A DNA stretch of 9,636 nucleotides from contig JAAFKL010000007.1 in the NCBI GenBank assembly GCA_021399405.1, positions 1-9,636 on the forward strand. Direction: 5' to 3'. Numbering within the stretch: the stretch's first letter is position 1; the number at the start of each line of letters is the position of its first letter. The DNA comes from Candidatus Heimdallarchaeota archaeon (GTDB lineage Archaea > Asgardarchaeota > Heimdallarchaeia > Heimdallarchaeales > Kariarchaeaceae). The notes beneath the pieces were generated by a model that was not told the DNA's origin, made no database searches, and was given only the letters and a program-made list of their open reading frames with translations. A program made the position numbers and the translations under genes. Of the stretch, positions 1 through 9,188 are shown one piece after another.

Positions 1-3000
1 AATACCAAGGATCTCAAACATGTAACAAATCTGATTGATGATCAACATAAAACAGCAATGCATAATTGGAGACAGACCAATGATTTTGATGAGCTTAGAA
101 AATCAGAAGCCAATTTACGCAAGAATTACCTGCGATTAATATTTGAATCCAGTAGTAGGTATGGAAATACTGTATTCAAAAGATACCAGGATCCCAAGGG
201 AGATATGGATCCAATGAATATGTTGTTTAATATTGCAGGTGCTCTCATGCGTGCATTTGCAGAGGAATTCTATCCCCTTCCCTCATTCGATGAGAGGATT
301 GGAAAGGATCGTGGATACATATCTCAAAAACATGCTTTTGTCACAATAACTCATCCCAATATCCCATCCCTTGATTTGATCGACATGACAAGGGCACACA
401 TGTGGTTTCTTTGCCACCATTTATTTATCTACAGGGTGAATTCTTTTGCTGCCACACGTTACCTGATGATACTACTATTCAAATTCAAATCTTATCTCTA
501 TTATATCTATGCTGGAGGAGGACAGGGAAGAAAGATAATAGAGAAAAAATATAATAGCATACTGGATATGGACAAGGACCTGTATGATGTGATCAGATTG
601 GCCAAATATGATCGCGAGACCAATCATGCAGTACACAGAGTGACTCAACTAGAATTACCAGATACAAAAAATAAGCTCTTCGATATGATAAAAGATGAAA
701 TTGATGATATCAATATCAATGATAAATTCTATTTAAAAGTGGTAGAACTATTCGAGATAGAGCAGAAAAAAATTGGTACAATCAGGCATCAAGAGATAAT
801 GTCTGGATTACCTCAACCATATAACCTTAGAGATATTGTTTTCAATGGGGATAAATATGTACAGAATAATTCTGGGTATCTAGTCGTGGCAGAATTACCC
901 ATTCCAAGTAAGAAATCAGCCAAGATCGATTTTGTAATATTCAAAAGAATTCTAAGAAAAACTAGGTATATCTGGATCCCGGTGATTATTCTAGATTTAA
1001 AGACTAAAACCGATGGAGCATTTGATTTCAAATCACAAGCTGTGAGGGGGCGACCAGAGCTGAAGCAACCAAAACCAGTGATTAAACTGGAACCTGTTGA
1101 TGAATGGCATATGACAGTCTCTAATGCCATGAATAAACATGCCTCCAACCAGTTGAATACCTATGTGCAAATAATTCGAAAAGAAATGAACGGAATTCTA
1201 AGAGAAGTTCAGCATGCACCACTGCAGGGAATTGTAGCTATTAGGGCCGAAAACAATGATCTACGAGATTCGATTCAAAATTTATTGTATTCACTCCCAG
1301 AATATCTCCTTGAAAATTATAAAGACCTGGGTGGCTGTTATTTCTATCCTGAGGATGAAGATATCGCAGTTATATTCAAAGACTTTCAAAATATTGAATT
1401 GCTGAGAGATCCCAAAGCTGGGAAGAAGAACCAATACATACCTCAATTATCTAGGGCAGAAAAAAATATTACACTCTATGTAACCTGTGCATCGAATATC
1501 AATTTTGGAAAGACAGCTGCAAATATTGCTGCTGTATATGACTGTATCAAAACAGTGGTTGAGGATCATGGAGAGATAATTGTACTAGATACTCTTGATG
1601 TATATTCTGATTTTACCACAGAAAGAATGAGATTACCCCAGGAATTCCTTGATAAAGTAGAAATTATTCCATTAGATGTCATAGATCCAGATTTAGACAT
1701 GCTTAGACAAATTAAAAAACCGGTGGTCATAACTGGTTGGGCAGACAGCAAAACAATGATTACTCGTCCCTGGGATAAAGAGCAATTGATATTAGAAAAT
1801 ATAAATACAGAGTATATATATTTAATCGATCGGGCAGTCAAGGGTATAAACACCTCAAAAATATATAATGATCGCTGTATACTACCTTACCGGGAATATA
1901 GTAAGAGGAAAAATTACATCTCCAAAATCATTTATAATTTACCTGTACCACCCAAGAAAATCAAAAAACCCCTGTACGATGATGTCCGGGTTATTATCGG
2001 TGAAAAAGCAGAGATCACAATCTGTCCTGCATTGACAGGGATTGCAATGAAATTTGAGAAAACGGATAGAAGAAAGAAAATTGATAGTAACCGCAATTTA
2101 TCTCTGATTAAACTGGAAGAAGTATATGATTTAATTGCTCATATGAGAACTGAGTATTCTCTTGAGAAATTAACTTTCGATTATTCTTCACTGGGTGAAA
2201 GAGAAGAGCTAATTCAGCTATTCCATCTACCACTTGTAAAAGAAAAGAAGAAAAAAGAAGTAAACCGAGAATTTAGGTCTCGCAATCCATTCAAGAGAAT
2301 AGTAAAAATGTATCAGAGAACATACAGGGTACCGTATAGTAATGAATTCGGGAGAAGAACTCTGGTAGTAGAAGCATTAGATGATGTCAAGGTGTTTATT
2401 GAAGCCAAAGAAGACCTAAATTATATCCTTGAGGATTTCGAAGATAATATTAATTATAATATAATGCAATCATTGATTTTATCAGAGACTCGTTTGGGAC
2501 TAAATTTATTGCCTTTAATTGAGGACCACAGGTATAATTTTTACAAGACTTATTGTATGCTTGATATGAATTATGAGAAATTTAAGGAAAACACCAACTG
2601 GTACAATTTGTTATTTCTTGCATTGAGATCAATATACCCCTTACGAGATAATCATCTGATACAACTATGGAGACAATTCAGTACCTGGATGCTATATACT
2701 CTTGGTTACGAGATGCGATCCAATATAAAATACATATTCAATATCGCAAATATCTGGAGACAGTTAGAATCCCGGTGTCATTACTACCTATCACTGGATG
2801 GTGAAGTTATAAGACACATGGAACAGGGAGTAATGGAAATTGGAGATCGATACTCTATCATTCGATTTGAGGATTCCAGGGGTCTATTTGAATTCACAGA
2901 CCATAATGAACTTAGGGAAGTTCACTGGCAAGTCAGTCATGCAGATGTTGTACTCAGCAATTTTGAATTAAAAGAAATAATCCCAATTTGTAGTGGGTAC

Positions 3001-4398
3001 CTGGGAACCGATAGATATTTGTGGTCGAATGATGACTGGTCTGAAGTAAGAAAGCTAAGGATGCGTGTGGATGAACTGAAGGAATGGAACATAAGGAATA
3101 TTCAGTTAATTCCCTGCAATTTGGAAGAGATACCCTCGGTGGATCCATACATACCTGAAACCAGAACATTGGACATAACATATGTTGGTTGCAATTTGGA
3201 ATATAATGATGGAATTGAGATGACAATCTATTCTAAAAAAACAGCTGAGATTTCAGAACAGATATACAAAGTATTTGACAATGTAGAGGAGCTCATGGAG
3301 GTACTCAGACACCTTTGGGGAAACATTTCTCATCCTCTTGAAATCGAAAACTATTATTGCAGGATTGAATTCAGGTATGATATTGATTGGGGGGTATTTG
3401 TATCACTAAGTAAATATCTAGGAAAAATCGATGTGCCTTTCATACTTGAGGATTTTGAATTTGTAGAGGGAATGGAGAAAATATATTTAAATTGTTATTT
3501 GAACCACAATGAAGAGATATGTGAAGAAGGTCATCCCAATTGCTGGATATGGGAGAGCTATAATGAGGATCTAGATTATTATCTATCCGATTATGCCTCT
3601 ACAGAGGATATCAAGGAGATATTTGACAAGAAAATAATTGAGCTGGAGGATATTGACAAAATCTATTTTCTGAATTTCAAATTTGATGAGAATAGAATAT
3701 TGTACCAGGAAAATAAGATAATCAAATCACTTCTGAGCAGGCATACGATTAATAGGTACCTGTTACTTGAATATAAGAGCTACGAAAAAGAGGTCACCAA
3801 GACACTAGAAGATATTTCTCATGATTCCAGCAATAATACACTAGTACTCACTTTTGTGAATAATATCACCAAGGAGAGTGAAATTGAGTTAATTAGCTAT
3901 ATTGCAGAAAATAAAAGAGAGCAGATGCAGGAGATTCTGTCTATATTTGATGGATTTGATTATCAAGAGGGTATTTATCCTGAGAATGTATTCAAAGAAA
4001 TAAAAGAAGAATGTGAAAGCTATTTGGAAGAATATCCTCTAGCTGAAATTGATAACTTTGAAATGAAAGATCCCACAATTACAATAAGTGATTTTGATTG
4101 TGATGAGGTTGATTATGATCAATACCATCTGCAACTCAAAATAGATGATCAATGGCATAATTATGAAAATAATCCCAATCGTCTTCTAGGTAAAGATGAA
4201 GTAATACGTTTGATAGATCAACTATTACAAGAGAAGAAAAAGCCATCTGGCAGAGATATTTTGAGTAATCTTATTGATTACTTCATTGAAATTGATTTAA
4301 CTGACCATGAAATTATTCCAGATGGGAATATGGAAGATATTGAAGAGATATTATCTGAACTAAAAGAAGAATTATTGAAAAATGAGGATGTTAATTAA
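1..4398 (+). CDS. Giant PD-(D/E)XK nuclease-domain protein with possible degenerate P-loop region (5'-partial)
   Basis: The frame is open from base 1. The 19 codons before the first in-window ATG (base 58) read as normal protein (NTKDLKHVTNLIDDQHKT...), and no ribosome-binding site precedes that ATG, so I treat the gene as 5'-partial with at least 1465 residues (numbering from base 1). Residues ~285-400 carry a PD-(D/E)XK nuclease core: E298 in a hydrophobic strand, D310 in AKIDFVIF, D332-L-K334 in VIILDLKTKT, and a QxxxY motif (Q384-Y388, QLNTY), the order seen in RecB/Cas4-type nucleases. Residues ~490-680 may form a RecA-like fold: a Walker-A-like SNINFGKT (498-505) lacking the first Gly, then IIVLD with D530 as a Walker-B candidate. 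Residues 1-285 and ~690-1465 are not recognised; the last ~350 are rich in Asp/Glu. There is no signal peptide or membrane segment in the visible part, suggesting a cytoplasmic DNA-acting protein. The downstream GTPase gene overlaps its stop codon. DNA cleavage is inferred from motifs; the ATPase reading is weak. Confidence 0.85.
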   Translation, partial: NTKDLKHVTNLIDDQHKTAMHNWRQTNDFDELRKSEANLRKNYLRLIFESSSRYGNTVFKRYQDPKGDMDPMNMLFNIAGALMRAFAEEFYPLPSFDERIGKDRGYISQKHAFVTITHPNIPSLDLIDMTRAHMWFLCHHLFIYRVNSFAATRYLMILLFKFKSYLYYIYAGGGQGRKIIEKKYNSILDMDKDLYDVIRLAKYDRETNHAVHRVTQLELPDTKNKLFDMIKDEIDDININDKFYLKVVELFEIEQKKIGTIRHQEIMSGLPQPYNLRDIVFNGDKYVQNNSGYLVVAELPIPSKKSAKIDFVIFKRILRKTRYIWIPVIILDLKTKTDGAFDFKSQAVRGRPELKQPKPVIKLEPVDEWHMTVSNAMNKHASNQLNTYVQIIRKEMNGILREVQHAPLQGIVAIRAENNDLRDSIQNLLYSLPEYLLENYKDLGGCYFYPEDEDIAVIFKDFQNIELLRDPKAGKKNQYIPQLSRAEKNITLYVTCASNINFGKTAANIAAVYDCIKTVVEDHGEIIVLDTLDVYSDFTTERMRLPQEFLDKVEIIPLDVIDPDLDMLRQIKKPVVITGWADSKTMITRPWDKEQLILENINTEYIYLIDRAVKGINTSKIYNDRCILPYREYSKRKNYISKIIYNLPVPPKKIKKPLYDDVRVIIGEKAEITICPALTGIAMKFEKTDRRKKIDSNRNLSLIKLEEVYDLIAHMRTEYSLEKLTFDYSSLGEREELIQLFHLPLVKEKKKKEVNREFRSRNPFKRIVKMYQRTYRVPYSNEFGRRTLVVEALDDVKVFIEAKEDLNYILEDFEDNINYNIMQSLILSETRLGLNLLPLIEDHRYNFYKTYCMLDMNYEKFKENTNWYNLLFLALRSIYPLRDNHLIQLWRQFSTWMLYTLGYEMRSNIKYIFNIANIWRQLESRCHYYLSLDGEVIRHMEQGVMEIGDRYSIIRFEDSRGLFEFTDHNELREVHWQVSHADVVLSNFELKEIIPICSGYLGTDRYLWSNDDWSEVRKLRMRVDELKEWNIRNIQLIPCNLEEIPSVDPYIPETRTLDITYVGCNLEYNDGIEMTIYSKKTAEISEQIYKVFDNVEELMEVLRHLWGNISHPLEIENYYCRIEFRYDIDWGVFVSLSKYLGKIDVPFILEDFEFVEGMEKIYLNCYLNHNEEICEEGHPNCWIWESYNEDLDYYLSDYASTEDIKEIFDKKIIELEDIDKIYFLNFKFDENRILYQENKIIKSLLSRHTINRYLLLEYKSYEKEVTKTLEDISHDSSNNTLVLTFVNNITKESEIELISYIAENKREQMQEILSIFDGFDYQEGIYPENVFKEIKEECESYLEEYPLAEIDNFEMKDPTITISDFDCDEVDYDQYHLQLKIDDQWHNYENNPNRLLGKDEVIRLIDQLLQEKKKPSGRDILSNLIDYFIEIDLTDHEIIPDGNMEDIEEILSELKEELLKNEDVN
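871..1170 (+). other. PD-(D/E)XK nuclease core within the giant protein
   Basis: This domain-level entry covers residues ~291-390. Visible residues are E298 at the end of GYLVVAE, D310 in KIDFVIF (motif II, acidic after a short charged stretch), D332 and K334 in ILDLKTKT (motif III, D-x-K variant of E-x-K), and Q384/Y388 in NQLNTYVQ (motif IV, QxxxY). In the RecB/Cas4 branch these residues bind the metal ion and position DNA. Spacing D310 to D332 is 22 residues and K334 to Q384 is 50, slightly long because of a Pro/Lys-rich loop. All key residues are present, so the domain is likely active. It could instead belong to another restriction-endonuclease-like clan with the same motif order. Confidence 0.65.
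4384..4388 (+). promoter_or_regulatory. Ribosome-binding site for the GTPase start
   Basis: GAGGA lies nine bases before the ATG at 4398, inside the last codons of the giant gene. Together with the one-base TAATG stop/start overlap it supports translational coupling of the two genes and fixes the GTPase start. Confidence 0.6.
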
Positions 4399-4613
4399 TG
4401 GAATATTTTAGAGTATTAGTTATTGGAGAGAGGGGTGTGGGTAAGACATCTCTAATCCAACGATTCCTTTCTGATACTTTTACTGAAAAATATTACGAGA
4501 CTAATGAGATACAGTATGTAAAATATCTACTCCCTGGCCTTTCGCAGATTATTGAGGAAGGAGACAACATCATCCCTGCTTTGAAAGTTGTTGCAGAATT
4601 TTGGGAAGAGTAG
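4398..4613 (+). pseudogene. Ras-like small GTPase, truncated after switch I and joined to a foreign tail
   Basis: Residues 1-45 are the opening of a Ras/Rab-type GTPase: strand FRVLVIG, P-loop GERGVGKT (10-17, with K16 and T17 as in Ras), helix 1 ending in FLSDTFTEKYY, and a switch-I threonine exactly at residue 35. The G3 DxxG, G4 NKxD and G5 SAK motifs are absent, and the ORF stops at 71 residues against the usual 160-200. The tail from about residue 46 (GLSQIIEEGDNIIPALKV...) does not fit a GTPase. It resembles the C-terminal helix of HxlR-type winged-helix regulators (pattern LTExGxxLIPxLxxLxxWxEE), so the ORF looks like a fusion of two gene ends. It could not bind guanine specifically or switch in the normal way. 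It has a good ribosome-binding site and a TAATG overlap with the giant gene, so the original gene was probably co-expressed with the nuclease. Many such GTPases are typical of Asgard archaea. Confidence 0.7.
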
Positions 4614-4891
4614 GAAAAGGAGTTTTGTGGAATTGTTACAGATGTAATATCACTATATGTTGTCTGAATAGGACTTTCAATTATTATTATTGGAAAATCG
4701 GTATCATACAAAGTGAATATCACAGTTTGTGTCTGTACAGGGAATGATTGATCTACTGAAACTATAGTTAAATTATGGCCTCCAAGGTCTAAATTGTGCC
4801 AAATGTACCCACTATCAATATTACTTCCATTAACAACATTATAAAAATATACACTGACAATTTGCCTTTGGCTCAACCTAATCCTCATCAT
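4614..4891 (-). pseudogene. Fragment of an Ig-like surface-protein domain
   Basis: Read on the minus strand, about 90 residues look like one or two beta-sandwich repeats of an archaeal cell-surface protein: a GHNLTIVSVD strand, then TVIFTLYDTDFPIIIIESP, the usual link between extracellular Ig-like repeats. There is no signal peptide, no ribosome-binding site before the ATG at 4891, and no anchor. The open frame runs on into the antisense of the GTPase ORF (to 4493), but beyond 4614 it stops looking like protein. I read it as a decayed piece of a larger gene left between two other fragments. Which surface protein it came from cannot be told. Confidence 0.4.
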
Positions 4892-4964: not shown

Positions 4965-5471
4965 TCACACCTCAATCTTCAATGGTTCCAGCAACTGACT
5001 AAAAACAGAAACAAAAGTCTTCATCAGAGCACCGGTATCCACATCCACAACCTTCACTTGATCCGCGGGTACCACCTTGGAATTTTTAATCTGCCCCTTG
5101 GGTAGAGCCAGTCCCTCTGGAACCACCACCTTGACAGCCTTCTCCACCTTCACATAATCCAAACGCACACCGCTCCTGAATTCATCCAGAGATCGCCCCG
5201 CATTGACCAGCTGTGCCACCACCTGCAAATTCTGCACCCAGGTCTTGTAGTACTCTGGTCTCTTGGTCAAGTTGGATGATATCATCACATCCTCGATCTC
5301 AAAATTACTACTTTTTATCCTTATTCTCAACTCCTCAAGTTTCTCCTTGATAAGTGGAACTGCAGCATGCATCTCCACCTTGGTAATTGCCTTACTTAAC
5401 ATAGTAATAATCTCGTTGAATGTGTCTCTAAAAATTTTTGGAGTATTAGATTTCCTACCCATCAGACCCAC
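4965..5471 (-). pseudogene. C-terminal (thumb) fragment of archaeal family B DNA polymerase
   Basis: The 168 residues match the end of archaeal replicative PolB: GLMGRKSNTP at the palm-to-thumb boundary, a helical thumb segment with LTKRPEYYKT (68-77; compare the family's LTK-x-x-x-EYK), then a YVKV strand, and the closing SVFSQLLEPLKIEV, which corresponds to the conserved end (S-x-F-x-QLLEPLGI). The exonuclease domain, fingers and palm, with the catalytic DTD and SLYPS motifs, are all missing, about three quarters of a normal 750-900 residue enzyme. The GTG at 5471 is only the first start codon in the frame: the four codons before it (KEII) still fit PolB, and the frame closes at a TAA at 5487-5485. 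No ribosome-binding site is seen. It therefore looks like a relic, not a split-polymerase subunit, though a subunit cannot be excluded. Its GC content (62 of 120 bases in 5041-5160) is far above its neighbours. Confidence 0.7.
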
Positions 5472-5561
5472 GATAATTTCTTTTAATTATGTCATTTCCA
5501 CTGATCATGGTAGCTGTTAAAACAGGAAAATCCCATTTCTAGGTAACAATATCCTTCTAAA

Positions 5562-5580
5562 ATATTCAAGAATTGAATAT
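5562..5580. repeat. Short perfect inverted repeat
   Basis: ATATTCAA and TTGAATAT form an 8-bp perfect stem around a 3-base GAA loop. No T-tract follows on either strand, and it sits between two gene fragments. It could be a regulator site or a junction scar; an 8-bp AT-rich palindrome can also arise by chance. Confidence 0.3.
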
Positions 5581-5617
5581 AAAATGAATCGGGGTACTGC
5601 TACAAAAATAAGATACA

Positions 5618-5785
5618 TCAGTCTCTATCCCGACCCGTGCCTGGGACAATTTTTCCCTCACTGTATACTACGGAACCATAGATCTCAATTCCGGTAGTGG
5701 TTGCCTCTAGATCATCTAATCTGGCATCATCAGATGAAGTTATCATTTCTGATACGTTGGCAGGGAAGAAGTCGGTGGTCAAATT
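5618..5785 (-). pseudogene. C-terminal fragment of an unidentified protein
   Basis: The minus strand carries about 55 protein-like codons (LTTDFFPANVSEMITSSDD..., later GIEIYGSVVYSEGKIVPG) ending at TGA 5620-5618. Acidic residues, an alternating beta-strand stretch and moderate GC suggest real coding origin. Upstream the frame is closed by consecutive TGA and TAA codons (5791-5786), and the TTG at 5782 has no ribosome-binding site, so the N-terminus is missing. I do not recognise the family. It sits upstream of the polymerase fragment on the same strand, so both could be leftovers of one deleted stretch. Confidence 0.4.
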
Positions 5786-5912
5786 TCATTAATTAATTAG
5801 AATTCTTTTATCAAGAAATTAAATCGGTGAAGGAGTACTAACTTGCATTAAAAGGATATATGTAATTGATATTTTCACAGCCTTAATAACATAGGGAAAT
5901 CAACAATGAATT

Positions 5913-8900
5913 TCAAATTATTCTGTATTTTCGGTTATAAAATTTCAATATTGGGAGCATTATTGTTAATAGAATTAAAGATGATATTGGAAATGACAAT
6001 GATCCAGTTGGACTTTCTTTTGTATCTTCATGACTAGATGTAGTTTCATCTCTGTCTAGAATTTTATCAAGAATAGATAAAAATTCAAGATATTTCTCTC
6101 TTGATCCTTGAACCGCATTATTTACATCTATAAAGACTGAATTGGAAACTTCAACTCCTTCTATATTCTTAACGATAGCCGTAACTATATAGTTCCCGTC
6201 CTGTACAAATTTATAACTGAAGTTGGAACCATAGATATCCAACTCATTTTGATATAGAATGTTCCCATCATTACCTATTTTTTTTATATTCCAATAAATT
6301 GAATTTGGATCAATATCTCCTATCTGTGGATCAAATCCACTGGCAGTTAAAGATATTGAAGAACCAACCGTTGAGTTTAGATTTCCCCTGTTTGGAATTA
6401 TGGTTTTTCCATCATCAGTCATCGAATTCCTCTCAATTTGTATTCTAGGGATTAATAGAGGAGATGCAATAACATCCTGATCATTGATTATTTTTGAGTT
6501 AAATCCATCTGATAATATCAATCTGAATTGTCCATTATCTCCTCCAGGAATGTTATTACCAAATACAACACCTTGTAAGATATTTTCGTCTGTCTGCCTT
6601 CCAATATTTATCCAACTACTACCATCATGAGAGTATTGCAATTGAGAATAGATATTTGTTTGATTTATCAAGTTTACATATTCCCATTTTATATCGAATA
6701 TTTCATCTCGAACAATAGAAAAGGGTGATATAATATCAACATCATCCACAGAGAATTCTGATCCGGTTATTTCATCTAATATATTACCTGAACTGTCTTT
6801 AATTCTAACTGCAGAAATTTGTCCATCATCATCTATCCACAAATTAAATCCATGTTTATCTCTTGCATAATGAAATTCATCTGGTAGTACATTTAAATCA
6901 ACAAATAATGAGTAGCTATTAGTGGTTTGATTTATAAAGTCAACTTCTATAGTATGAGTAGGGATAATTCCCTTTTCTACACTTGGTATTACGTTAAAAC
7001 TACCGGGTAAGTTATAGGAAGGTTCAAATTTTGCAGTTCCATCCTTATGTATATATCCTGTTATTTTCCTTGTAGAGTTTAAGGTGAAGTCTATATTTAT
7101 TGATTCTTTATTTACTTCTTCATTAATATTTAATTTACTAGTGAATATAGGATGTACTGGCATACCAGGTACAAATCCTTCTAATCTATCAATTAAAAAC
7201 TCCCATCTATAGTCTGAAATCCAGCTGTATGGATATTTATCACTATAACAATAACTCATAAAATCATTTTCATTACTATCAATAATATCATTATTAAGAT
7301 TTCTTAATCCCAGAGTAGTTGGATATAATTGATTCAAATTATCATTATTACTTGGCCAAGACCTATCAGATCCATCTGCACCACATCCCCAGTTTGGATC
7401 ATTGACACCATTATTTGGGTATGATACATGCCTTCCCCAGTTATTATCACCGATGTTGTGATTGACTTCATGCGCTGCTACATCTGGACTGAATAATGTA
7501 CCAACTACTGATGCCATGGAAGGTAATCCATTATACCAACTGGGTGAACTCTGACCCCCTCCTCCTGCAGTAAATCCAATAATTTGATCCGGTATGGGGT
7601 AGCGTGTAGGTAGGTGTAGTGTTCTTTGCAAAATGATAGCTAGAGTGATAAGCATTGCATAATCAGTTAATTCTGAGAGTACTTCGTCTCTATCATACCT
7701 ACCTCCCCATGCACCAATTACTGACCAATCCAATTCTATGAAATTTATGCTCTTTGTTGGAAAGACGTTTTTGATGAAATTAAATTGCTTGACTAGTGCT
7801 GCAGAAGAAGTTTGATTAGGTTGACTTGCTGTACCTTTATTTACTCTAACGTAAAGGATATTCATCACATGTGTCTTTTTGAAGAAAAAGCCATCTGTTT
7901 TTGAGTTATCATCAATACGAGTGTCAACATGGTCGACAGGAACCACCTCTGCTTTGAGTATCAGAAAAGGCACATGGGTCCATCCCCCAGGTAGTTCAAA
8001 AATAACTGCATCTGTTCTATTTGTACGGTATGCTATCGGAGGTGCGAAAAATCGTTGAGTTAACGTTCCAAAATCAAACATGTTAGGTACTTGCAGTGCA
8101 GATCCTGTCAATCTTACCTCTACAAGTACAGGGAGATGTATCGGATTATTGATAAACACCCTCACTTTTGTAGTCTTTCCATAGACTAACCGAATAAAAT
8201 TATCCTCAGTTTGTATTGCTTGTGTGACCTCAATATGATCAATAGCTAGATCAATATCCAATTTAGTATCTGAGACAACAACTACATTGTATACTGCAAA
8301 CACAGAAACTTCTTTTTCTTGTGCAGAATTGGTTGTCGGTTTGGAGGGATAGCCATATTTAATCCCAGTGGCTGAAGCGATTATTATACCATAACTAACC
8401 TTGTCAAGTGACACATTTGTTAGTTTCAAATTTGGCAATGTCAAATCAAGCAATTCATAATATGAAGAAGGTAAAAATTGTATTTCAACGGAATCAGATG
8501 TTTTACCTTCATTATTCCTAATAAATAAATCAGGTTCACTTAAAGCGATTTTTCCTGTTTTTGAGATTAACTCATTATATTTATTGAATCCACTAGCAAC
8601 TGGATCCCAATTGGGATTATCTAAATTCCACTCCTTTATTTTCCATAGATTTGGATTTAGAACTGTTGGATCACTCCACAACCCGTTATAATATATTTTT
8701 AATTTATTATCAATCGAAAATAATTCTGCATTGTTATTTTGGTTGCTTTTTATTGGGTCATATGCTTTATTTCCAATTAACTTTAAATCACCATTGCTAA
8801 CACTACCATCATTGTCAATATCTAGTTGTAGTTCTACTGAACTCACCAATTCTGGAAATTCAAAAGATAAAAATAGGTTATTTGAAACCATTTTACTTGA

Positions 8901-9188
8901 GATTGAAGAGGTAATAGGATTTATCGCTTGATTTAATATAAGATTTGAACTTGCGGCTGGCTGGAATTCAACAATTTCAGTTTTAGCGTCCTCCCATTCA
9001 CTGATAGTTGAGGAAGATGATAATTTATCTATCACCCCATCAATCCTTGGGTTGAAAAACCCATTTATATTCTTTGGTGATCCAATACTAGCAGCATTCA
9101 AAATGATTATATTTACCGGAATTAATGAAGTAAAAATTAATATTATCATTATAAACGGCACATTCAATTTATTTTTCATATCAATCAT
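5913..9188 (-). CDS. Secreted, membrane-anchored HExxH metallopeptidase with DOMON-like and PKD/Ig-like domains
   Basis: This 1091-residue protein starts with a signal peptide (basic MKNK, hydrophobic core ~10-30, likely cleavage after A33). Residues ~46-150 look like a DOMON/CBM9-type domain: IDGVI...EWEDA, then LDIDNDGSVSNGD (D123-D134), a possible calcium or sugar site. Around 315-345 is IEVTQAIQ...LVYGKTTKVRVFI, a segment common before secreted metallopeptidase domains. The catalytic part has H573-E574-V-N-H577 followed by NIGDNNWGRH (H587 as possible third zinc ligand) and a Met-turn-like DFMSYCY (M644), then WISDY. This resembles metzincins, with a 4-residue insertion before the third His. 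Residues ~800-930 are Ig-like and ~937-1022 PKD-like. The end is a Ser/Thr/Glu linker, a membrane helix (~1064-1083) and a basic tail, placing the enzyme on the outer cell face. The first ATG suits the promoter below; an inner ATG at 9179 is possible. Substrate unknown. It stands alone and is intact. Confidence 0.85.
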   Translation of the reverse strand: MIDMKNKLNVPFIMIILIFTSLIPVNIIILNAASIGSPKNINGFFNPRIDGVIDKLSSSSTISEWEDAKTEIVEFQPAASSNLILNQAINPITSSISSKMVSNNLFLSFEFPELVSSVELQLDIDNDGSVSNGDLKLIGNKAYDPIKSNQNNNAELFSIDNKLKIYYNGLWSDPTVLNPNLWKIKEWNLDNPNWDPVASGFNKYNELISKTGKIALSEPDLFIRNNEGKTSDSVEIQFLPSSYYELLDLTLPNLKLTNVSLDKVSYGIIIASATGIKYGYPSKPTTNSAQEKEVSVFAVYNVVVVSDTKLDIDLAIDHIEVTQAIQTEDNFIRLVYGKTTKVRVFINNPIHLPVLVEVRLTGSALQVPNMFDFGTLTQRFFAPPIAYRTNRTDAVIFELPGGWTHVPFLILKAEVVPVDHVDTRIDDNSKTDGFFFKKTHVMNILYVRVNKGTASQPNQTSSAALVKQFNFIKNVFPTKSINFIELDWSVIGAWGGRYDRDEVLSELTDYAMLITLAIILQRTLHLPTRYPIPDQIIGFTAGGGGQSSPSWYNGLPSMASVVGTLFSPDVAAHEVNHNIGDNNWGRHVSYPNNGVNDPNWGCGADGSDRSWPSNNDNLNQLYPTTLGLRNLNNDIIDSNENDFMSYCYSDKYPYSWISDYRWEFLIDRLEGFVPGMPVHPIFTSKLNINEEVNKESINIDFTLNSTRKITGYIHKDGTAKFEPSYNLPGSFNVIPSVEKGIIPTHTIEVDFINQTTNSYSLFVDLNVLPDEFHYARDKHGFNLWIDDDGQISAVRIKDSSGNILDEITGSEFSVDDVDIISPFSIVRDEIFDIKWEYVNLINQTNIYSQLQYSHDGSSWINIGRQTDENILQGVVFGNNIPGGDNGQFRLILSDGFNSKIINDQDVIASPLLIPRIQIERNSMTDDGKTIIPNRGNLNSTVGSSISLTASGFDPQIGDIDPNSIYWNIKKIGNDGNILYQNELDIYGSNFSYKFVQDGNYIVTAIVKNIEGVEVSNSVFIDVNNAVQGSREKYLEFLSILDKILDRDETTSSHEDTKESPTGSLSFPISSLILLTIMLPILKFYNRKYRII

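What the first reader, a model, noticed from the sequence alone, without database searches (positions are those of the whole stretch)
1..4613. Giant nuclease protein translationally coupled to a Ras-like GTPase: candidate new system
A 1465+ residue protein with complete PD-(D/E)XK/QxxxY motifs overlaps by one base (TAATG, with GAGGA upstream) a gene starting as a Ras-family GTPase. Nucleases paired with NTPases are a recurrent plan in prokaryotic defence and mobile-element systems, but I know of no described system joining a large RecB/Cas4-like nuclease protein to a eukaryote-like small GTPase. The idea is that the GTPase acts as a switch for the nuclease.
Basis: partly seen in the sequence, partly recalled or inferred. 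Interest (0 to 1): 0.75.

Follow-up and report, generated by a model that had tools for sequence, protein, structure and literature searches.

The report
Giant integrase-nuclease of Asgard transposons
The giant nuclease gene belongs to a family found in mobile elements of Asgard archaea, where a very large protein with a DNA-cutting domain and a domain resembling the CRISPR integrase Cas1 is paired with the RNA-guided nuclease TnpB; the GTPase beside it in this window is a broken bystander.

Summary
The 1465-aa open frame, its PD-(D/E)XK/QxxxY motifs and the TAATG overlap are real. The "GTPase" is a 71-aa stump with no continuation in any + frame. A GTPase-like frame follows within 1 kb on the same strand in only 2 of 43 non-redundant relatives.

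The recurrent partner lies upstream, off this contig: in 54 of 62 non-redundant Asgard relatives the giant gene is divergently paired with tnpB. Flank comparison shows two insertions of about 7.9 and 8.6 kb; in both, the tnpB-side end coincides with the end of a conserved omegaRNA-like motif, with 10-bp or 6-bp direct repeats. One genome gave 37 matches, fragments included.

Best reading: a Cas1-like integrase/nuclease mobilises the element and an interchangeable TnpB homes it. Catalysis is inferred; the window's own tnpB is not seen. Diverged Asgard Cas1 homologues were reported in 2020 (paper not held), so novelty is moderate.

The parts
1..4398 (+). Giant gene, 5' end cut by the contig edge (1465 aa held, about 26 residues missing by comparison with P0002 and P0003): the finding itself
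   Evidence: open frame; relatives
1..534 (+). Residues 1-178: helical domain resembling the Cas1 catalytic domain; invariant E36 (nt 106-108), H118 (352-354), D125 (373-375), D128 (382-384), R131 (391-393)
853..1245 (+). Residues about 285-415: PD-(D/E)XK nuclease; E298 (892-894), D310 (928-930), D332 (994-996), K334 (1000-1002), Q384 (1150-1152), Y388 (1162-1164)
   Evidence: conservation; strand 293-301, strand 304-319, strand 322-336, helix 379-399, strand 408-415
1456..2037 (+). Residues 486-679: RecA/KaiC-like fold with a P-loop that is not conserved, so probably not an active NTPase
2098..4398 (+). Residues 700-1465: variable C-terminal half, fold not determined
   Evidence: (mean pLDDT 60.8, pTM 0.35)
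4398..4613 (+). Truncated start of a Ras/Roc-type GTPase gene: neighbour, not part of the recurrent system

Best explanation
The gene is the large protein of a family of Asgard mobile elements of about 8 kb with the plan tnpB <- -> giant. SHOWN by sequence, in relatives: the divergent pairing, multiple intact and decayed copies per genome, two insertions into sites that are empty in relatives, an omegaRNA-like motif whose end coincides with the tnpB-side boundary of these two elements, and two invariant sets of residues in the giant. INFERRED: the N-terminal domain is a Cas1-like integrase that joins the element's ends to the target, leaving a short target duplication; the PD-(D/E)XK domain trims or cuts DNA ends for it (a role like Cas4 or TnsA); the RecA-like domain is a structural DNA-handling part; and TnpB, guided by the host sequence just outside the element, cuts the empty site so that the element is kept and copied. 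A minority of elements also carry an IS607-type serine recombinase. For this window the tnpB partner is inferred from relatives, because the contig begins inside the giant gene.
For: Pairing: of 62 non-redundant loci, 54 with divergent tnpB, 2 with tnpB downstream on the same strand, 6 without tnpB seen, 4 of which hold under 1.5 kb upstream. Heimdallarchaeota loci L001 and L002 are paired. The window's relative P0004 (44% identity) lies on a 38,502-bp contig, and TnpB P0017 is also listed on a contig of 38,502 bp. TnpB identity: PF07282 at E 7.5e-11 to 6.6e-15 in 6 of 6 tested. Mobility: 37 matches, fragments included and some with stops, in one genome; 36 of 227 genomes of the phylum have a match. 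Insertions: L019, whose flanks lie 14-231 bp apart in 11 of 12 fetched relatives, the twelfth ending at its contig end; L016 against L112. The L016 alignment with the empty site ends exactly at the motif's end (AACAGGTTC) and a 6-bp repeat with one mismatch flanks the element. In L019 homology stops 23 bp further out; a 10-bp repeat ends exactly at the motif's end (ATGGGTTC). Cas1 likeness: (local profile score 24.2, 0 of 100 column shuffles reach it). Nuclease residues. Partner exchange: TnpB type changes 10 times on the giant's tree, at least 7 forced by well-supported branches, shuffled mean 15.5 (FastTree). Parallel: 2 of 4 fetched giants of genome G087 (2160 and 2601 aa), with Cas1 over Pfam's cut-off, are also divergent to tnpB.
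Confidence: 0.6

Rival explanations
1. The giant is a passenger of TnpB/IS607-type transposons: TnpA, acting in cis or trans, moves the element, TnpB maintains it, and the giant serves something else, for example destroying rival DNA.
For: IS607-type TnpA (MerR-type HTH plus Resolvase) or its remnant lies next to the giant in 8 of 62 loci, in 3 of them as an open frame overlapping its 3' end (L007, L090, L105). TnpB types swap.
Against: None of 27 type A loci with at least 700 bp held downstream has TnpA, against 5 of 13 type B loci. Two mapped insertions have 10- and 6-bp duplications, which IS607 and IS200/IS605 insertions are not known to leave (recalled). The Cas1-like residues are invariant.
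Confidence: 0.23
2. A defence module: giant nuclease plus TnpB act against invading DNA, carried on mobile elements.
For: Nuclease plus RNA-guided nuclease is a common defence plan (general knowledge); copies are many and diverse.
Against: No PADLOC family in P0001, P0004 or P0006 and one weak partial hit in P0005. In the two mapped cases the sequence after the motif is host DNA at the insertion site, as in homing elements, not foreign DNA.
Confidence: 0.1
3. One reading: the giant and a Ras-like GTPase form one operon, the GTPase switching the nuclease.
For: TAATG overlap with GAGGA upstream; clear G1 motif.
Against: The GTPase is a 71-aa stump; 2 of 43 relatives have a GTPase-like frame within 1 kb downstream on the same strand.
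Confidence: 0.03

Closest known systems
IS607 / IS200-IS605 elements with TnpB
   Same: TnpB with a conserved motif downstream of its 3' end, at which the element ends in the two mapped cases; IS607-type TnpA in a minority
   Different: An opposed gene for a Cas1-like/PD-(D/E)XK protein of about 1400-1960 aa beside tnpB; no TnpA in 27 of 27 type A loci with downstream sequence; short target duplications in the two mapped cases
Casposons (Cas1-encoding transposons)
   Same: A Cas1-like catalytic domain encoded by a mobile element
   Different: No family-wide terminal inverted repeats (2 of 11 loci); duplications of 6 and 10 bp rather than about 14-15 bp (recalled); TnpB present; Cas1 likeness seen only by fold and residues
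Diverged Cas1 homologues of Asgard archaea (Makarova et al. 2020, CRISPR J; not held)
   Same: A 2022 review passage says Asgard genomes hold unprecedented Cas1 diversity, some possibly in new mobile elements (PMC8730458)
   Different: Whether the paper includes this family or the TnpB pairing could not be checked
Aloposons (PMC8813620)
   Same: Asgard transposons with giant proteins
   Different: Tandem genes of 3000-6000 aa at tRNA sites with a ParA-like ATPase; the word TnpB does not occur in the main text (passages and counts)
Ealt TnpB / Fanzor (PMC10711439)
   Same: Type A TnpBs have the glutamate six residues before the zinc finger in 37 of 37 (definition read in passages)
   Different: Archaeal, with a giant partner; RuvC-I consensus reads D-L-G, not D-P-G

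Membership tests
PD-(D/E)XK nuclease superfamily | Catalytic D ... (D/E)xK plus QxxxY motif | tested here: met
   D310, D/E332, K334, Q384, Y388 in 66 of 66; E298 in 64 of 66
PD-(D/E)XK nuclease superfamily | alpha-beta-beta-beta-alpha-beta core fold | tested here: inconclusive
   Order of elements in the model fits; structure searches were filled by other domains
Cas4 | Sequence kinship with Cas4 | tested here: inconclusive
   hhalign against 8 Asgard Cas4-like proteins (picked by motif from 30 loci) aligned only 7 columns; 2 of 100 shuffles scored as high
Cas1 | Catalytic E and D with conserved surroundings | tested here: met
   E36, D125, D128, R131 in 66 of 66; E36, the GPLNALLNYAG stretch and LDxxDxxR fall in register with Cas1 EG, DPVNALLSYG and LDxxExFR in a global profile alignment
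Cas1 | Catalytic H between them | tested here: inconclusive
   H118 is invariant in 66 of 66 and stands before LDxxDxxR as in Cas1, but is not in register with the Cas1 H in the profile alignment
Cas1 | Fold of the C-terminal catalytic domain | tested here: inconclusive
Cas1 | Recognised by the Pfam Cas1 model | tested here: not met
   No Cas_Cas1 among the 25 families shown of 35 matched, 51 members scanned at E up to 10; hence called Cas1-like, not Cas1
Cas1 | N-terminal beta domain ahead of the helical domain | tested here: not met
   26 residues precede window residue 1 in P0002 and P0003, and 0-58 (median 32, from the first M) in the 62 loci: too few for that domain (its size recalled)
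Casposon | Terminal inverted repeats | tested here: not met
   Inverted repeats of 46-47 bp around the pair in 2 of 11 loci tested, and the L008 repeat occurs at further places
Casposon | Family B DNA polymerase in the element | not tested
   No systematic search; the window's PolB fragment (4965-5471, -) is not placed in the element
IS607 | Serine recombinase TnpA with MerR-type HTH beside TnpB | tested here: not met
   Gene or remnant in 8 of 62; PF00239 E 1.2e-20 and PF12728 E 4e-11 in L007; 0 of 27 type A and 5 of 13 type B loci with 700 bp or more downstream; so met only by a subgroup
TnpB | Cas12f1-like/TnpB domain and RuvC catalytic residues | tested here: met
   PF07282 in 6 of 6; type A: glutamate motif and RuvC-III D in 37 of 37, RuvC-I pattern in 34 of 37; type B: RuvC-III in 13 of 13, RuvC-I pattern matched in only 5 of 13 with the expression used
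Ras-family GTPase (4398-4613) | G1 P-loop | tested here: met
Ras-family GTPase (4398-4613) | G3 DxxG and G4 NKxD | tested here: not met
   Frame ends at 71 aa; no continuation in three frames
Aloposon | Tandem genes for proteins of 3000-6000 aa | tested here: not met
   One giant of at most 1964 aa per locus among 62; definition from PMC8813620 passages

The most novel reading that the evidence does not exclude
Asgard archaea carry a class of mobile elements that unites, in one 8-kb unit, a Cas1-like integrase, a PD-(D/E)XK nuclease and an RNA-guided TnpB whose effector part is exchanged again and again: a living parallel to the union of a Cas1 adaptation module with a TnpB-derived effector that made type V CRISPR-Cas. 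In its boldest form the giant also writes new guide sequence next to the omegaRNA.
Probability: 0.35. Interest if true: 0.93.

Novelty: new variant of a known kind. Interest (0 to 1): 0.72.

Why it matters
Type V CRISPR systems are thought to have arisen when a Cas1 integration module met a TnpB nuclease (general knowledge). A mobile element in which a Cas1-like protein and TnpB are already neighbours, with the TnpB type changing at least seven times on the giant's tree, would let that step be studied directly. It would also give TnpB elements a second mobilising enzyme beside the known TnpA types, explain a set of giant unannotated proteins of Asgard genomes, and offer a natural set of Ealt-type TnpBs.

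Tried and rejected
GTPase as partner: rejected. Terminal inverted repeats as a family feature: L004 and L008 only, of 11 loci tested; the L008 repeat occurs at further places. A 10-bp duplication at L113: withdrawn, because the match belongs to a 27-nt stretch of 16S rRNA beside a complete 16S gene that carries a 30-nt insert. Repeats at L103 and L124: ambiguous, tRNA genes lie there. Repeat count: 37 element ends were located by motif and 32 had enough downstream sequence; one (L007) was dropped as an artefact of a short flank, leaving 31, of which 5 (L019, L103, L113, L117, L124) had 9 bp or more, against about 1.9% of mismatched pairs (the 3.1% of pairs at 20 bp, the L007 artefact, left out); L113 is now withdrawn, and only L019 of the five is backed by an empty site. 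Cas4 kinship: not shown. Active P-loop in the RecA-like part: rejected. Viral relatives: no stretch matched the six peptide patterns in viral contigs, no structural match at E <= 0.001. Solved relatives by sequence: none for the window protein at E up to 1; profiles gave only weak hits, best E 0.027 and 0.03. C-terminal half: poor model, not searched. Aloposons: a different element. The global hhalign score was reached by 1 of 100 shuffles, so I rely on the local score and the residues. Copy numbers are lower bounds, because at most two candidates per genome were scored. The tree is FastTree's, warns of long branches meeting in the Heimdallarchaeota part, and P0004, L084 and L086 were given their TnpB type by me (from P0017 and the downstream tnpB). 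Literature searches: aloposon (22), Asgard/TnpB/transposon/nuclease (23; 25 of 196 listed), IS607/TnpB/cargo/nuclease (71), Thorarchaeota/TnpB (72, none), Cas1/Asgard/casposon (75), Asgard/Cas1 homologs/mobile genetic elements (78), casposon/TnpB/Cas1 (98), Asgard/Cas1/Cas4/TnpB (99, none); none of the titles or abstract openings listed describes this family. Most subscription papers are not held.

Full report
OBSERVATION. The window holds one frame open from base 1 to 4398 (1465 aa), a 71-aa frame overlapping its stop at 4398-4613, and other frames on the minus strand. Relatives P0002 and P0003 (73-75% identity) start 26 residues earlier. The PD-(D/E)XK/QxxxY motifs are real and strictly kept. 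The 71-aa frame has a good G1 motif but breaks off; the three + frames to 4970 show no continuation. So the coupling described is between a real giant gene and a GTPase stump.

RELATIVES. A search of 5.8 billion proteins (7995 best candidates scored) gave 6 hits, the window itself included; two carry an organism name, both Candidatus Heimdallarchaeota, one of them LC_2. A scan of one genome for each of 84,980 species gave 23 loci, 2 Heimdallarchaeota and 21 Thorarchaeota (it rests on two peptide patterns, so other groups may be missed). In the phylum of these genomes 36 of 227 match. Copies are many: in six genomes 2, 7, 37, 2, 8 and 5 matches, fragments included, some with internal stops.

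THE PARTNER. Upstream of the giant, on the other strand, lies tnpB. Of 62 non-redundant loci, 54 have it divergent; 49 of these are under 250 bp away between open frames, one 437 bp, and four 1.07-1.20 kb, three of them with a further gene of about 230 aa between. Two loci (L084, L086) have tnpB downstream on the same strand. Six show none: L020, L023, L037 and L115 hold under 1.5 kb upstream, L083 and L116 hold more; L037, L083, L115 and L116 group with L084 and L086. The window begins inside the giant, so its own partner cannot be seen. Its relative P0004 and TnpB P0017 are both listed on contigs of 38,502 bp, most simply the same contig; no TnpB listed lies on a contig as long as those of P0002 or P0003. 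Two TnpB types occur. Type A has the alternative glutamate, ExWTSxxC, in 37 of 37, as defined for Fanzor-like TnpBs in PMC10711439 (passages read). Type B shows FE-L at the canonical place in its consensus. On the giant's tree the type changes 10 times, at least 7 forced by well-supported branches, against a shuffled mean of 15.5; for example sister giants L010 and L014 carry types A and B. The pairing is kept while the partner changes. In another Asgard genome, G087, four giants with Cas1 matches were fetched; two of them (2160 and 2601 aa, helicase and Cas1 domains over Pfam's cut-offs) also stand divergent to tnpB, and the neighbours of the other two were searched only with this family's TnpB profiles, without a hit.

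MOBILITY. Downstream of tnpB is a conserved stretch ending TTCACTCAC-N-AACAGGTC or similar in type A loci. Element L019 splits a region whose flanks lie 14-231 bp apart in 11 of 12 fetched relatives, the twelfth ending at its contig end: the element is about 7.9 kb; homology of the left flank stops 23 bp outside the motif, and a 10-bp repeat, present once in relatives in similar form, runs up to the motif's end. Element L016 (about 8.6 kb) is missing from the same place in L112; here the alignment ends exactly at the motif, with a 6-bp repeat, one mismatch. L112 in turn carries its element beside a tRNA-Leu gene, with 101 bp overlapping on both sides and 1.7 kb of extra DNA, a less clear case. 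An IS607-type TnpA or remnant adjoins the giant in 8 of 62 loci: 0 of 27 type A and 5 of 13 type B loci with at least 700 bp downstream, L005 with less, and L084 and L086. In known TnpB elements the guide is the flank just outside this end (recalled), so TnpB would be directed at the empty site.

HOW IT MOST LIKELY WORKS. Shown, in relatives: the plan, two insertions, the conserved residues, the boundary at the end of the motif. Inferred: the Cas1-like domain joins the element to the target; the PD-(D/E)XK domain prepares ends; TnpB homes on the empty site. Rival: the giant is a passenger moved by IS607-type TnpA in trans. Duplications of 6 and 10 bp and the absence of TnpA from type A copies speak against it, but the unequal lengths keep it open, as does break repair after TnpB cutting.

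WHAT IS KNOWN. A review passage (PMC8730458) cites Makarova et al. 2020 for great Cas1 diversity in Asgard archaea, some possibly in new mobile elements; that paper is not held, so I cannot say whether this family was listed. Searches for Asgard with Cas1, Cas4 and TnpB, and for Thorarchaeota with TnpB, gave no paper. Aloposons are different (PMC8813620, passages). I rate it a new variant of a known kind, with a real chance of being more.

Noticed in passing
window 4965-5471 (-): C-terminal piece of a family B DNA polymerase (PF00136, E 1.2e-6); by eye no polymerase continuation in the three minus-strand frames of 5400-5912. Probably a gene fragment.
   Followed up: partly
window 5913-9188 (-): 1091-aa secreted-looking protein with a HEVNH motif like zinc metallopeptidases (motif recalled) and a weak PKD match below the cut-off.
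   Followed up: no
window 4493-4891 (-): 132-aa frame, no Pfam match, read through the stretch where the GTPase breaks off: a possible junction of two gene remnants.
   Followed up: partly
L208 873-10500, L210 1264-9392: Giants of 2601 and 2160 aa with DEAD helicase and Cas1 domains, divergent to tnpB, in an Asgard genome (G087) outside the family studied.
   Followed up: partly
L205, L206, L207: Proteins of 1325-1367 aa with weak Cas1 Pfam matches, each near two similar-looking genes of about 270-285 aa; may be the CRISPR-like systems described for Asgard archaea (recalled).
   Followed up: no
L113 3601-5132 and about 12589: A complete 16S rRNA gene with a 30-nt insert stands beside the giant, and the flank next to the tnpB-side motif is a 27-nt 16S stretch without that insert. 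Could be a guide against 16S or an insertion scar.
   Followed up: partly
L111, L114, L118, L127: Elements with near-identical flanks (GTGCATGCAGCC...) in L111, L114 and L127; in L111, L114 and L118 a homologous gene starting MPPKDM... lies next to the tnpB end. Suggests the same target site in several genomes.
   Followed up: partly
L017 183-256 and 8198-8270: Second copy of the omegaRNA-like end in the same direction beyond the giant gene.
   Followed up: partly
L016 9118-9798, L017 2505-3248, L022 9079-9789, L023 1-699: A small gene of about 230 aa just before the giant in one subclade; of the three scanned, two have no Pfam match and one only weak ones below the cut-off.
   Followed up: partly
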